From Acidimicrobiia bacterium (GTDB lineage Bacteria; Actinomycetota; Acidimicrobiia; Spongiisociales; UBA11373), in contig JBBDMM010000002.1 of assembly GCA_040878325.1 (NCBI GenBank), positions 1 to 35,762 on the forward strand: 35,762 nt of DNA. The letters are read 5' to 3'. The position numbers were made by a program, and so were the translations under genes. The stretch's first letter is position 1. Each line of letters begins with the position of its first letter. Positions 3,460 through 15,957 of this stretch are shown here, in pieces. Under the pieces are notes generated by a model. It made no database searches and was not told the DNA's origin. It worked only from the letters and a program-made list of their open reading frames with translations.

Positions 3460-3496
3460 GACTCAGCCCGCAGTCTTCACGACTGCGGGCTGAGTC
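3460..3496. terminator. Bidirectional terminator hairpin
   Basis: A perfect 16-bp stem, GACTCAGCCCGCAGTC, with loop TTCAC and its complement, followed by GTTTCT. It sits between two convergent genes, four bases from the YjbQ stop codon, and can serve both strands. Confidence 0.9.
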
Positions 3497-3500
3497 GTTT

Positions 3501-3911
3501 CTAGGCCGGGAGGAACGAGAGGCGGACCGTTCTCTGCGGGTTGTCACCGTTGGGGTCTACCAGGACGATCGACTGCCACGTTCCGAGTTGGAGAGTGCCG
3601 TCGAGCACCGGGACCGTGATGGACGGGGCGATGAACGCCGGCAGCACGTGGTCTGCACCGTGACCAGGGGAACCGTGGCGATGCTCCCAACGGCCGTCCC
3701 GGGGGAAGAGCGTCTCGAGGTGAGTGACCAGGTCGCGATCACTGCCGGCTCCCGTTTCGAAGATGGCCACTCCGGCGGTGGCATGGGGCACGAAGACCGA
3801 GAGCAGGCCGTCGGCGCGACCCGACACGAACCGGGCTGCCTCGGAAGTGATGTCGACCGCCGCAGCCTCCGCTCCGGTGGTGACCTCGATGGTCACAGAG
3901 TCCAAAGACAT
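3501..3911 (-). CDS. YjbQ/UPF0047 family protein
   Basis: 136 residues, the usual size for this single-domain family (some members show thiamine phosphate synthase activity; the physiological role is unsettled). Family-typical segments are SVFVPHATAGVAIFETG, HLETLFP, HRHGSPGHGADHVLPAFIAPSITVPV and LGTWQSIVLVD. The open frame continues to 3968, but those extra residues are encoded by the left arm of a 91-bp inverted repeat. The ATG at 3911 matches family N-termini, so I use it. That start codon lies inside the arm, so folding of the mRNA could hide it. Confidence 0.88.
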   Translation of the reverse strand: MSLDSVTIEVTTGAEAAAVDITSEAARFVSGRADGLLSVFVPHATAGVAIFETGAGSDRDLVTHLETLFPRDGRWEHRHGSPGHGADHVLPAFIAPSITVPVLDGTLQLGTWQSIVLVDPNGDNPQRTVRLSFLPA

Positions 3912-3996
3912 ACGGAAGTGGGCTCGCCTCGGGATGATGTATCGGCTTGGTCCAAGCCGATACATCATGGGTCCTGCGACCCATTTCCGTATGTCT
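3906..3996 (-). repeat. 91-bp structured palindrome, copy 1
   Basis: Minus-strand reading: 17-bp outer stem (AGACATACGGAAATGGG, one mismatch), 5' internal strand TCGCAGGACCC, 15-bp inner stem ATGATGTATCGGCTT, loop GGACC, the returning inner arm, 3' internal strand CCCGAGGCGAG, and the outer arm. It starts at the base after the stop codon of the upstream gene (3997) and runs over the YjbQ start. It shares its architecture and internal-loop sequence with 14592-14684. Confidence 0.9.
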
Positions 3997-5292
3997 TCAG
4001 TCGGACATCGACTCCATGTAGTCGCGCACCTCGGGCATGGCCGTCATCTTCTCGTAGAAGAAGTTGTTGACGATGTTGAGCAGGGCATCGCGCGCCTGTT
4101 CGGCCGCTGCCGAATCGACCCCGCCGTCGCGCACACCGTCGCGCACCGCCAGGAGTTGAGCGACGATCGCCTCCTCCTCTACCCCTTCGAGTGACCGGAC
4201 CACATCGACGATCGTGCGGTCCACCTGGTCGAGGACGGCTCTGTGGTCGACGGTGGAGTCCGGCCCGGACGCCTCCTCAATCGTCCGCACCACGGCGTAG
4301 ACCTGATAGAGGGCCGTGGTGGGCTCGTCGAATATCTCCCGGAGAAAGGCCGCTTCCAGATAGTGCCCGCTCATTCGAAACACGTTGTACATGCGCTTGG
4401 CGGCCTTGCCGATATTGGGATGGTCGCGGGCGAGGTACTTCCGCACTTCCTTCTCCAGGGAATCAACGTACTCGTCGAGGGCGTCGGCCGAGACGTGCTG
4501 GGCCAGCTTGCTGAACAGCGGCACCTCCTCGGCGTTCAGGTAAACCTCCTGGAAGTAGGGGTCGAGGTATCCGTCGAGGGGCGTGATCGACCCGTCGGGC
4601 GCCTCCCAGGTCACGTCGAGCATGTTGGAGGCGTTGGCGAGTTGCTTGCGCACCGGATCGGCGACAACCCAATCGAGCTTGCACCATCCGGGGTTCTCCG
4701 CCACCTCGGCCCAGCGGATCGTCACTTCCTTGCCGTCGGAATCCTCGACGACGAACTCGCCCGCTGCGATCTCGTCGCCCGACCAAGCAATGGGGCTGCC
4801 CGCCCGCAGTTGGGACCCGCCACGGATCACATCGACCGGGTATTGGCCGAACTTGGCCTCGATGAAGCGGTAGGTGTCCCCCTCCATCTTGTCGATCACC
4901 TTCTTGCGAAGCACTTCGGCGGTCCGGCGGCAGGCGTCGACGCGAGTGGCGGCCTTGATGTTCACCCGCTCGAAGTAGTCGCAGTCACCGGGATATGCCT
5001 GGATCTTGGACTGGGCGGCTGAACCGGAGAGGGCGAGCGCCGTCTCGACATCGTCCTCGTCCGGGATCTCGACCAGCGCACCGACCGAGCGGAAGAAGGC
5101 CAGGTCGTCAGGGCTGAAGTCGAGCATGACCATCCGATGGCCAAAGACACCGGTGCGGTGGTCGAGTGTGATCTCGCTCTGGCCGCTGCCCACCTCCATC
5201 GCCTTCATCCAGCGATCGGCTTCGGCGGCGTCCAGTTCCAACCCAGCCCGCGCCGCGGACTCGATTATGCGGTCAAGGTCACTATTAGTCAT
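3997..5292 (-). CDS. Conserved hypothetical protein with a nucleotidyltransferase-like motif
   Basis: 431 residues from the ATG at 5292; an in-frame extension to 5325 looks unlike coding sequence. I do not recognise the family by name. Residues 90-105 read Gly-Ser, eleven residues, then Asp-Cys-Asp (PGDCDYFERVNI). This fits the Pol-beta nucleotidyltransferase superfamily pattern hG[GS]x(9-13)Dh[DE]h. A possible third acidic residue lies in the segment FVVEDSDGKEVTIRW. The C-terminal 200 residues look helical and acidic. No signal peptide or membrane segment. The stop codon directly abuts the 91-bp palindrome. The motif is seen; the nucleotidyltransferase reading is inference. Confidence 0.7.
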   Translation of the reverse strand: MTNSDLDRIIESAARAGLELDAAEADRWMKAMEVGSGQSEITLDHRTGVFGHRMVMLDFSPDDLAFFRSVGALVEIPDEDDVETALALSGSAAQSKIQAYPGDCDYFERVNIKAATRVDACRRTAEVLRKKVIDKMEGDTYRFIEAKFGQYPVDVIRGGSQLRAGSPIAWSGDEIAAGEFVVEDSDGKEVTIRWAEVAENPGWCKLDWVVADPVRKQLANASNMLDVTWEAPDGSITPLDGYLDPYFQEVYLNAEEVPLFSKLAQHVSADALDEYVDSLEKEVRKYLARDHPNIGKAAKRMYNVFRMSGHYLEAAFLREIFDEPTTALYQVYAVVRTIEEASGPDSTVDHRAVLDQVDRTIVDVVRSLEGVEEEAIVAQLLAVRDGVRDGGVDSAAAEQARDALLNIVNNFFYEKMTAMPEVRDYMESMSD

Positions 5293-5312
5293 GGGACGAA
5301 GACTACGCCGTC

Positions 5313-5462
5313 GAGGCCCCAGCAACAGCCCCTGCCCCAGTCAGAACGGCACAAGGTGATTCGGGCCGGAACCGCAGCGGGGTCGGAACAGGATTCTGGC
5401 TGTGGCCGGAGCCGGAGCCGGGGCTGGATTTCTGGCTGTGGCCGGAGCCGTGGCTGGGGCGA
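5313..5462. repeat. Hexanucleotide-periodic region (CCGGCT/CCACAG)
   Basis: On the minus strand the region is built of 6-bp units such as CAGCCA, CGGCTC, CGGCCA and CAGCCC. It includes two near-identical stretches of about 30 bp (about 5394-5426 and 5429-5460). It fills the gap between prs and the next gene; no gene is visible in it. The other 6-bp array is at 8283-8320. Confidence 0.7.
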
Positions 5463-5463
5463 G

Positions 5464-5494
5464 AGAATGTGTGACCGTCGAGGTCACACATTCT
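5464..5494 (-). terminator. Hairpin overlapping the prs stop codon
   Basis: A perfect 13-bp stem, AGAATGTGTGACC, with a 5-nt loop (GTCGA on the plus strand). The prs stop codon (5484-5486) and last sense codons lie in one arm. Probable terminator for the metG-prs transcription unit. Confidence 0.75.
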
Positions 5495-6455
5495 CCCCCA
5501 TGAATATCTGGCTCACCGAGGTGTCCATGAAGATCGCCTTGAGGGTGTCGGCGAGCAGGGGGGCGATCGAGAGGATGGTCAGGTTCGGGAGCCCGGCGGC
5601 GTCCTCGGGGACCGGGAGGGTGTTGGTAACCACAACCTCCTTGAGGGGAGAGTTCTTGATTCGGTCGGCGGCGGGTGGAGGCAGGATCGCATGAGTCGAC
5701 AACGCCCTCACCGACAAGGCACCTCGATCGGCGAGAAGCTCGGCGGCGAGGACGATGGTGCTGGCGGTGCCGATCATGTCGTCGACGATCACACAATGTC
5801 GACCCTCCACCTCGCCCACCACCTGGAGGGCACTCACCTCGTCGGCGACGTCGACCCGACGCCGCTTGTGCACGAACGCCACTTCTGCGTCGAGGTGGCG
5901 GGCGTAACGCGATGCCTGCTTCACCCGGCCGCTGTCGGGGGAGACGATGGTGAGCGGCTTCTCGCCGTTCGTCTTGAGGTACTCGCGGAAGATCGGCAGC
6001 GCCGTGAGCGAGTCGAAAGGCTTGGTGGTGAAGCCCTGAATCTGTGGCGAGTGCAGATCGACCGACACCAGGCGGTCGGCACCGGCCGTCACGAAGAGGT
6101 CGGCCATGAGACGCGCCGAGATCGGCTCGCGCGGCATGCTCTTCTTGTCCTGCCGGGAGTAGCCGAAGTAGGGCACCACCGCGGTGATCCGCTTGGCCGA
6201 CGCCCGCTGCAGTGCGTCGATCATGATCAACTGCTCCATGACATGGAAGTTGATCGGGTTGCTGTGGCTCTGGAGCACGAAACAATCGGCGCCACGAACG
6301 CTCTGCTGGTAGCGGACCGAGATCTCGCCGTCGGCGAAGGTCTTCAGATCGACCAAACCGACCTCGATATCCAGAAGGGCCGCGACTTCCTCCGCCAGCC
6401 CGGGGTTCGCCGAACCCGTGAAGAGCATCAAGCGCTTCCGGTTCTTGGTCTCCAT
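5484..6455 (-). CDS. prs: Ribose-phosphate pyrophosphokinase (PRPP synthase)
   Basis: Makes PRPP from ribose 5-phosphate and ATP, feeding purine, pyrimidine, histidine and NAD synthesis. Visible motifs: YFGYSRQDKK, the divalent-metal loop VDLHSPQIQGF, VSPDSGRVKQA and the PRPP-binding loop VIVDDMIGTASTI. Length about 323, normal. Two starts are possible: GTG at 6467, overlapping the glmU stop as GTGA, or ATG at 6455 with GAAAGG four bases upstream. I chose the ATG. Translation is probably coupled to glmU, the usual partner in actinobacteria. The stop lies in a terminator-like hairpin. Confidence 0.96.
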   Translation of the reverse strand: METKNRKRLMLFTGSANPGLAEEVAALLDIEVGLVDLKTFADGEISVRYQQSVRGADCFVLQSHSNPINFHVMEQLIMIDALQRASAKRITAVVPYFGYSRQDKKSMPREPISARLMADLFVTAGADRLVSVDLHSPQIQGFTTKPFDSLTALPIFREYLKTNGEKPLTIVSPDSGRVKQASRYARHLDAEVAFVHKRRRVDVADEVSALQVVGEVEGRHCVIVDDMIGTASTIVLAAELLADRGALSVRALSTHAILPPPAADRIKNSPLKEVVVTNTLPVPEDAAGLPNLTILSIAPLLADTLKAIFMDTSVSQIFMGENV

Positions 6456-14520: not shown

Positions 14521-14591
14521 AGTCCCCCGATCTCCTTAATCCGATGTGACGGGCATTGTGGCACCCGCCACCCATCGTGTCACCTGGCCTA

Positions 14592-14684
14592 AGAGCGCGC
14601 GCCAATAGGTCGCTGGTTCTATCAGGTGTCGGCTTGCGGGAAGCCGACACCTGATCCCGGGGCGAGCCTATTGGCGCGCGCTCT
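14592..14684 (+). repeat. 93-bp structured palindrome, copy 2
   Basis: Plus-strand reading: perfect 18-bp outer stem AGAGCGCGCGCCAATAGG, 5' internal strand TCGCTGGTTCT, 15-bp inner stem ATCAGGTGTCGGCTT, loop GCGGG, inner return, 3' internal strand CCCGGGGCGAG, outer return. Same layout and internal-loop sequence as 3906-3996, with a different outer stem. It overlaps the stop codon of the minus-strand gene ending at 14683 and fills the gap to the next gene. Confidence 0.9.
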
Positions 14685-15957
14685 ACGGGAGGGCTCCCCC
14701 GCTGCGGAGAGACTCGACCAGGGAAATACCGGAATTGCGATCGAAGGCGCCCACGAACAGCACTCGCTGGCCGGACCGTTCGACATACGCGTAGGCCGAG
14801 CCGCCCGGGAACGTAGTGACATCTCCGCCCTGCGGAGATCCGACGTCCATACGCGCCGCCACGGAATCGATCAGGTACTCGGCGAACTCCTCGGCATCAC
14901 GCGGCGTGTCACCCTCGTACAGGTAGGCGAACAACAGGTCGGTGCCGTTCCAATAGAGCCGATACTGGTCGCCGCCCCAACCCCCCGCGCCGACCACCGC
15001 GTTGCCCCGGCTCACCCCGTCGAGCAGGTAGAGCATGAGGTTCCACTCGCCGAAGATGCCCTCTTCGAACACCTCATAGCCCGCCACCTCGGCGGCGGGC
15101 AGGCTGACCTCGCGGGCCGGCTCCTGGGCGAAGTACTTCTCGGGGTGAAGAATCTGCTCGGTGGTTGTCGGCGGCCTCTCATATGCCTGGTTCACGCCGA
15201 CGATGCCGTGCTCCTGCACCAGCCGGGAGACGAAACCGAAGCCGGAGTCATAGGGGAACGTGAGGTCTTCCGCGAACCACGCGGGCAGCGAGTCGATCAC
15301 GGCCGTGTCGACACCGAGAGACTCCTGGATGGCATCCAACTGCTCGTCGACCGGGAGTTCCTGCATGTAGATGAGCTGGTAGTAGGTGGCGTCGCCTTCG
15401 ACCAGCGCCTGCAGCGCAACCGCTTCCTCGAACTGCTTGGCGTCGACCAGGGCGGTCGAGCGGTCGTCGAAGCCGTAGTGCTGATCGGTGAGAGCGTGGA
15501 TCAACTCGTGGACAACAATCGTCTTGGAAAGCGCGCTGAGGCCCGAACCCCCCGCCGAGACGACCATCTCGCCGGTATCGCCGTCGTAGAACCCGCCAAC
15601 CTGCTCGGCGTAAAGGTCCCGATAGGCCTGGCCCAGGTCCACCGTGCCGTCGAGCAGACCGAGTAGCTCATAGAGGCGCTGGAGGACCGCCACCTCCTCC
15701 GGGTCGAGATCTTCCTCGATCTGAAGCCTGACCCGTTCCGCCAGCTCTGCCTGTGTGACGACTGTGACGGTCGGCTCGTCGAAGAACTCGAGGCCGCGCA
15801 CCCGCTCGGCCTCGGCCACCAACGCGGCGATCTCTCCATCCACCCCTCTCGGAGCGAGGGTGCTGGTGGGTCCGGTGGTGGAGGAGGGAGTCGCGTCATC
15901 ACCACATGCGCCCGCGACGAGGGCGAGCACCATGAGAAGCGGGAAAAGACGGCGCAT
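14683..15957 (-). CDS. Lipoprotein, putative zinc metallopeptidase
   Basis: 424 residues. The N-terminus is a lipoprotein signal peptide with lipobox LVAGAC (Cys18) and a Ser/Thr-rich linker, so the protein is probably membrane-anchored outside the cell. Residues 150-154 are HELIH inside VVHELIHALTDQHYG, a gluzincin-type HExxH site. About 35 residues later ALVEGDATYYQ offers a plausible third ligand (Glu). Much of the remainder is acidic, suited to an exported protein. Substrate unknown. The stop codon is part of the 93-bp palindrome. Confidence 0.85.
   Translation of the reverse strand: MRRLFPLLMVLALVAGACGDDATPSSTTGPTSTLAPRGVDGEIAALVAEAERVRGLEFFDEPTVTVVTQAELAERVRLQIEEDLDPEEVAVLQRLYELLGLLDGTVDLGQAYRDLYAEQVGGFYDGDTGEMVVSAGGSGLSALSKTIVVHELIHALTDQHYGFDDRSTALVDAKQFEEAVALQALVEGDATYYQLIYMQELPVDEQLDAIQESLGVDTAVIDSLPAWFAEDLTFPYDSGFGFVSRLVQEHGIVGVNQAYERPPTTTEQILHPEKYFAQEPAREVSLPAAEVAGYEVFEEGIFGEWNLMLYLLDGVSRGNAVVGAGGWGGDQYRLYWNGTDLLFAYLYEGDTPRDAEEFAEYLIDSVAARMDVGSPQGGDVTTFPGGSAYAYVERSGQRVLFVGAFDRNSGISLVESLRSGGALP

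What the first reader, a model, noticed from the sequence alone, without database searches (positions are those of the whole stretch)
3906..3996. Two distant 91/93-bp palindromes share a conserved internal-loop architecture (copy 1; copy 2 at 14592-14684)
Read in matching orientation, both have an outer stem of 17-18 bp, a 5' strand TCGCAGGACCC or TCGCTGGTTCT, a 15-bp inner stem ending GTRTCGGCTT, a 5-nt loop, a 3' strand CCCGAGGCGAG or CCCGGGGCGAG, and the closing outer arm. The outer stems are unrelated in sequence but remain paired, and the inner stem changes on both sides (TGTATC versus GGTGTC). The unpaired strands, by contrast, are nearly constant. TCGC and GCGA can pair to extend the outer stem past a bulged G. 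This is the signature of a selected structure, not a chance inverted repeat. Both touch a stop codon of a minus-strand gene, in opposite orientations, which suggests a mobile or repeated 3'-end element, a structured RNA, or a protein-bound DNA hairpin. I know no described family with this consensus.
Basis: partly seen in the sequence, partly recalled or inferred. Interest (0 to 1): 0.8.

Follow-up and report, generated by a model that had tools for sequence, protein, structure and literature searches.

The report
Mobile DNA palindrome at gene ends
The two hairpins are copies of a small jumping DNA element of about 91 bases, which inserts at the short sequence CTNAG (often a gene's stop codon) in one family of uncultured Actinobacteria, and whose two arms change together as DNA, probably by copying from each other, rather than being a conserved RNA.

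Summary
The window copies belong to a dispersed family: 13 copies in this genome and 86 in 7 of 14 genomes of one bacterial family, and none elsewhere in 395 genomes of the class. Each copy is a 91-bp near-palindrome with two stems and an asymmetric internal loop.

It is best explained as a palindromic miniature inverted-repeat transposable element (MITE). It is flanked by 3-bp TNA duplications within C|TNA|G targets (35 of 85 copies identical, 8 expected). Window copy 1 has a clean empty site in a species of the same genus. Copies multiplied within lineages; two are identical at unrelated sites.

The stop-codon contact follows from the target: CTNAG contains TAA, TAG or TGA. Half of the gene 3' ends facing a copy stop inside the duplication.

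The paired changes are real, but do not show RNA selection. G-T and A-C mismatches are equal (42:48), also when oriented by transcription (29:30). In 21 young copies, two-sided changes equal one-sided ones (17:17; 0.03 expected), and the inner loop occurs equally in both orientations. This points to copying between arms, as in template switching.

No partner transposase was found. The IS5/PHIS type is inferred only from the target.

The parts
3906..3996 (-). copy 1 of the palindromic element (91 bp between the flanking target-site sequences)
   Evidence: (96.5 bits, E 9e-17); empty site in G001
3980..3997 (-). copy 1 outer stem, 5' arm (pairs with 3905-3922)
3905..3922 (-). copy 1 outer stem, 3' arm
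3976..3979 (-). copy 1 TCGC, pairs with GCGA at 3924-3927 past a bulged G (3923)
   Evidence: TCAC/GTGA covariation in other copies
3969..3975 (-). copy 1 5' internal-loop strand (NGGNNNN type; only GG is conserved)
3934..3968 (-). copy 1 inner hairpin (arms 3952-3968 and 3934-3950)
3928..3933 (-). copy 1 3' internal-loop strand CCCGAG (CCCGGG type, most conserved part)
3997..3999 (-). copy 1 target-site sequence TGA = stop codon of the upstream gene 3997-5325; the same codon ends the gene at the empty site in G001
3903..3905 (-). copy 1 other-side flank TTG, where the second copy of TGA is expected (decayed or overwritten by stem extension)
14593..14683 (+). copy 2 of the palindromic element (91 bp)
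   Evidence: (108.2 bits, E 3e-19)
14592..14609 (+). copy 2 outer stem, 5' arm (pairs with 14667-14684)
14667..14684 (+). copy 2 outer stem, 3' arm
14610..14613 (+). copy 2 TCGC, pairs with GCGA at 14662-14665 past a bulged G (14666)
14621..14655 (+). copy 2 inner hairpin (15-bp stem, 5-nt loop)
14656..14661 (+). copy 2 3' internal-loop strand CCCGGG
14590..14592 (+). copy 2 left target-site sequence TAA (in CTAAG)
14684..14686 (+). copy 2 right target-site sequence TAC (one change from TAA); overlaps the stop codon (14683-14685) of the minus-strand gene 14683-15957

Best explanation
The two palindromes are copies of a non-autonomous DNA transposon, a palindromic MITE of about 91 bp. It inserts into C|TNA|G and duplicates the central TNA (shown by flank statistics and an empty site). 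CTNAG always contains a stop codon on at least one strand. Insertion at a native stop codon leaves the gene complete, so surviving copies sit at gene 3' ends (shown for copy 1; generalised by inference). A DDE transposase working in trans, probably of the IS5/PHIS kind, moved it (inferred from the 3-bp TNA duplication; the enzyme was not found). After insertion the arms stay complementary because one arm is copied onto the other when the palindrome folds in replication. That gives two-sided stem changes and flipped inner loops (inferred from mutation patterns). Its cellular effect, if any, is unknown; a side effect as a transcription barrier between neighbouring genes is possible but untested.
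For: Copy number: 13 copies in the own genome and 86 in 7 genomes, found only in this family among 395 genomes of the class. Duplication: 35 of 85 copies have identical 3-mers on both sides, against 8.0 on average and 20 at most in 5000 permutations. The types are nearly all TNA (TCA 13, TGA 12, TAA 5, TTA 2), with C before (28/35) and G after (28/35). Where both sides read CTNAG, N matches in 20 of 21 (6 expected). Among copies with equal 3-mers, almost every 5-mer difference lies at the base outside the TNA, so the duplication is 3 bp. Insertion: clean empty site for copy 1 in G001...CTGA/TGGACTC... where G000 holds the element. Amplification: nearest neighbour lies in the same genome for 53 of 77 copies (19 expected); two G007 copies are identical at unrelated sites. 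Stop codons: 40 of 78 facing gene ends stop inside the duplication. Arm copying: 17 two-sided versus 17 one-sided changes in 21 young G007 copies (0.03 expected), with loop GTGGC 8 versus GCCAC 9. GATCCT/AGGATC is a second inverted loop pair. No RNA signature: G-T 42, A-C 48. Template switching is known to give both patterns (PMC8794818), and C|TNA|G with a likely 3-bp TNA duplication is the target of the NuwaII PHIS transposons (PMC4482050).
Against: No autonomous element with these ends was found, and no DDE_Tnp_1, DDE_Tnp_1_2 or DDE_Tnp_4 transposase in any carrier genome, nor Y1 in the carriers searched. G007, with the most copies, also lacks rve. In 50 of 85 copies the two 3-bp flanks differ, including both window copies. 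The outermost 10-12 bp differ between subfamilies, which is unusual for ends cut by one transposase. The nearly constant CCCGGG strand and the intact internal loop suggest some selection that drift plus arm copying does not explain. Codirectional copies lean to one orientation (24 versus 12; borderline).
Confidence: 0.85

Rival explanations
1. A structured RNA element (3'-UTR motif, terminator or mRNA stabiliser) whose fold is kept by selection on the transcript.
For: Very strong pairing and two-sided changes; many copies at gene 3' ends and 20 between convergent genes; 3' internal-loop strand highly conserved.
Against: No excess of G-U over A-C mismatches (42:48; 29:30 oriented by transcription). 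Two-sided changes are as common as one-sided in copies only a few percent diverged. Flanking TNA duplications and empty sites. Copies occur in both orientations. No Rfam match.
Confidence: 0.07
2. A repetitive extragenic palindrome (REP/REPIN) moved as single-stranded DNA by a RAYT (Y1 HUH) transposase.
For: Short imperfect palindromes, many copies, extragenic, at gene ends.
Against: No Y1_Tnp gene in 21 genomes including six of the seven carriers, with controls ringing; 3-bp target-site duplications and empty sites of the kind made by DDE enzymes; no constant GTAG or CGTC tag at one end in the copies.
Confidence: 0.03
3. The stems are kept paired by selection on a DNA structure (cruciform or hairpin recognised by a transposase or host protein), not by arm-to-arm copying. 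The element is the same mobile one; only the cause of the paired changes differs.
For: Asymmetric internal loop and CCCGGG strand kept in nearly all copies; symmetric G-T/A-C mismatches fit any DNA-level cause.
Against: Selection on two-step compensation predicts a surplus of one-sided over two-sided changes in young copies; they are equal, with 0.03 two-sided expected under independence. Inverted loops need a strand-switch event.
Confidence: 0.25
4. The element has been taken over as a bidirectional transcription barrier between neighbouring genes, which explains its retention. This can be true together with the best explanation.
For: 20 of 86 copies lie between convergent genes and 40 of 78 facing gene ends stop in its flank; predicted folds are very stable.
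Against: 36 copies lie between codirectional and 11 between divergent genes; the C|TNA|G target alone predicts contact with stop codons; no T-tract follows the copies listed.
Confidence: 0.2

Closest known systems
NuwaII group of PHIS (PIF/Harbinger-IS5 superfamily) DNA transposons (PMC4482050)
   Same: most likely 3-bp TNA target-site duplication within C|TNA|G; terminal inverted repeats
   Different: NuwaII are eukaryotic elements with their own transposases; here bacterial, no transposase found, and the whole element is a near-perfect palindrome
Bacterial IS5 family, IS1031-type (TNA duplications; from own knowledge)
   Same: 3-bp TNA duplication, ends beginning GG/GA
   Different: no IS5-type transposase domain in any carrier genome and no full-length element with these ends
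Bacterial palindromic MITEs such as ERIC, RUP and Correia elements (review PMC10969869; details from own knowledge)
   Same: short, non-coding, multi-copy, near-palindromic, mostly intergenic, moved in trans
   Different: these mostly duplicate TA; here C|TNA|G, a two-stem fold with a conserved asymmetric internal loop, and arms and loops that change in concert
REP/REPIN-RAYT systems (PMC2817692, PMC3733652)
   Same: extragenic imperfect palindromes
   Different: no Y1 transposase, has target-site duplications, no constant GTAG/CGTC tag

Membership tests
MITE (non-autonomous DNA transposon) | terminal inverted repeats | tested here: met
   outer stem of 18 pairs plus TCGC/GCGA, 92.9% of cells paired over 57 copies
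MITE (non-autonomous DNA transposon) | target-site duplication | tested here: met
   35 of 85 identical 3-bp flanks, 8 expected
MITE (non-autonomous DNA transposon) | dispersed multi-copy, under about 600 bp | tested here: met
   86 copies of about 91 bp in 7 genomes
MITE (non-autonomous DNA transposon) | empty sites in relatives | tested here: met
   clean empty site for window copy 1 in G001; less clean ones for copy 2 and for the copy at C18:49227
MITE (non-autonomous DNA transposon) | autonomous partner with the same ends (usual, not required of every MITE) | tested here: inconclusive
   none found, but assemblies are drafts and not all transposase families were searched
IS5 / PHIS-derived element | 3-bp TNA duplication in C|TNA|G | tested here: met
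   PMC4482050
IS5 / PHIS-derived element | IS5/PHIS-type transposase acts on it | tested here: inconclusive
   no DDE_Tnp_1, DDE_Tnp_1_2 or DDE_Tnp_4 in carriers; the enzyme may be lost or unassembled
REP/RAYT | RAYT (Y1_Tnp) gene in the genome | tested here: not met
   0 of 21 genomes, controls ring in 5
Rfam RNA families | match at the gathering score | tested here: not met
   only two tRNAs in the window
structured RNA | G-U tolerated over A-C in stems | tested here: not met
   42 versus 48; 29 versus 30 oriented by transcription

The most novel reading that the evidence does not exclude
A bacterial palindromic transposon family in which arm-to-arm copying (template switching or cruciform resolution) is as frequent as ordinary point mutation, so that stems evolve in concert and inner loops flip at random. 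The kept asymmetric internal loop would be a required recognition site, and the transposase would be of a kind not covered by the DDE and HUH families searched here.
Probability: 0.25. Interest if true: 0.65.

Novelty: new member of a known kind. Interest (0 to 1): 0.42.

Why it matters
It shows how a textbook covariation signal, usually read as proof of a functional RNA, can come from a mobile DNA palindrome whose arms copy each other; the G-T versus A-C count and inverted loops give a simple test to tell the two apart. It gives a natural set of young, near-identical palindromes in which the rate of template switching can be measured. It also explains an apparent association with stop codons by the insertion target alone.

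Tried and rejected
RAYT/REP: no Y1 transposase. Known RNA family: none. IS5/IS4-type, PIF-type, IS3/IS30-type partner: DDE_Tnp_1 only in non-carriers G010 and G012; DDE_Tnp_1_2 nowhere; DDE_Tnp_4 only in non-carrier G002; rve scattered and absent from G007; none of the examined loci has matching ends. DDE_Tnp_ISAZ013: no hits, but its controls did not ring either, so uninformative. Extra copies of the element's ends outside full palindromes: those examined are not ends of a longer element, but shortened or folded-back remnants or contig ends. Viral contigs: no exact match to the probe. A Chloroflexota probe hit (L153) has no palindrome and is chance.

Full report
OBSERVATION. Both palindromes are present as described. 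Read in matching orientation each has an outer stem of 18 pairs, TCGC/GCGA past a bulged G, an asymmetric internal loop, and an inner hairpin of at least 15 bp. A gapped pattern of the constant parts found seven such palindromes in the own genome (2.21 Mb, 18 contigs) among nine matches; the reversed control pattern found none. A covariance model from these seven finds 13 copies in the own genome. Fifty-eight further genomes add copies only in six members of the same taxonomic family: G007 30, G009 24, G001 6, G006 6, G005 5, G013 2, so 86 in all. The lowest-scoring of these are uncertain. A second model from 57 copies, run over 395 genomes of the class, finds the same seven genomes and no others. 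A probe scan of about 85,000 named species genomes finds only Actinobacteria bacterium RBG_16_68_21 (its contigs match G005 in length) and Actinomycetota UBA11373, plus one chance hit in a Chloroflexota contig. The scan may leave out records very near the window's own genome. No viral contig matches exactly.

INSERTION. The flanks carry short direct repeats. The 3-mers next to the element are identical in 35 of 85 copies, against 8.0 on average and at most 20 in 5000 permutations. They are nearly all TNA (TCA 13, TGA 12, TAA 5, TTA 2), with C before and G after in 28 of 35 each. Where both sides read CTNAG, N agrees in 20 of 21 (6 expected), and almost all 5-mer mismatches among copies with equal 3-mers lie at the outer base. 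So the duplication is TNA (3 bp) in the target C|TNA|G. The flanks of window copy 1, joined, match sister genomes without the element; in G001 the site reads ...CTGA TGGACTC... with a clean gap where G000 has the element. For copy 2 and the copy at C18:49227, G001 also lacks the hairpin, but the surrounding alignment is less clean. Copies cluster by genome (53 of 77 nearest neighbours in the same genome, 19 expected), and two G007 copies at unrelated sites are identical.

STOP CODONS. CTNAG contains TAA, TAG or TGA on at least one strand. Of 78 gene 3' ends facing a copy, 40 stop inside the duplication (genes called by a simple composition score, so approximate). For copy 1 the same TGA ends the gene at the empty site in G001, so the stop predates the insertion. 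Copies also lie between codirectional (36) and divergent (11) genes. The gene downstream of copy 1 is a UPF0047 protein; its upstream neighbour and the gene ending at copy 2 match no Pfam family.

PAIRED CHANGES. Over 57 copies 94.1% of cells pair and 338 cells are changed on both sides (shuffled mean 84). Two tests ask whether this is RNA. First, an RNA stem tolerates G-U but not A-C; here G-T and A-C mismatches number 42 and 48 (p = 0.6), and 29 and 30 when read in the direction of transcription. Second, in 21 closely related G007 copies there are 17 one-sided and 17 two-sided paired changes, with 0.03 two-sided expected from independent mutation. Some of the 17 are shared by descent (one C-G to A-T change accounts for six), but about ten events remain. 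The inner loop occurs as GTGGC 8 times and as its reverse complement GCCAC 9 times; GATCCT/AGGATC in G009 is a second such pair. Template switching in replication is known to produce both multiple compensatory changes and loop inversion (PMC8794818). The best reading is that arms copy each other as DNA. One feature is left unexplained: the 3' internal-loop strand CCCGGG is the most constant part (mean 0.91, against 0.66 for the 5' strand and 0.73 for the outer tips), and the internal loop is almost never converted to a perfect stem. It may be a binding site.

MOBILISING ENZYME. Not found. DDE_Tnp_1, DDE_Tnp_1_2 and DDE_Tnp_4 are absent from all carriers, and Y1_Tnp from the six carriers searched; rve is absent from G007. 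The few transposase loci examined have unrelated ends. Other occurrences of the element's end sequence that were examined are remnants or contig ends. The TNA duplication in C|TNA|G is that of the NuwaII PHIS transposons (PMC4482050) and, from own knowledge, of IS1031-type IS5 elements; so an IS5/PHIS-like source, now lost or unassembled, is the most likely.

VERDICT. A new family of palindromic MITE: ordinary in kind, unusual in the clarity of its concerted arm evolution.

Noticed in passing
L131:3606-3640 (G000:C10) and L134:3080-3112 (G000:C15): Two mini-hairpins, AACGGGTGAGCGA-ATAGG-TCGCTCACCCGTT and GGGGGTTAGCGA-ATAGG-TCGCTAACCCCC: the left end of the element folded back on itself at GCGAATAGGTCGC, as if made by one template switch.
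   Followed up: partly
window 3460-3496: Another perfect hairpin (GACTCAGCCCGCAGTC, 5-nt loop), followed by a short T-rich stretch; probably an ordinary terminator.
   Followed up: no
window 5463-5495: Perfect 14-bp hairpin GAGAATGTGTGACC/GGTCACACATTCTC, function unknown, no relation to this element found.
   Followed up: no
L104:2086-2181 (G013) and L065:2050-2145 (G009): Orthologous copies at the same site in two species of one genus; the outer stem differs by several adjacent bases on both arms and still mostly pairs.
   Followed up: partly
L140, L142, L143, L144, L122 (G007 contig ends): Five G007 contig ends lie inside the element's inner hairpin, so the copy number in that genome is probably underestimated.
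   Followed up: no
G004:C1: The single-contig genome G004 of the same family has 17 rve-type integrase matches, several with identical scores, but no copy of this palindrome.
   Followed up: no
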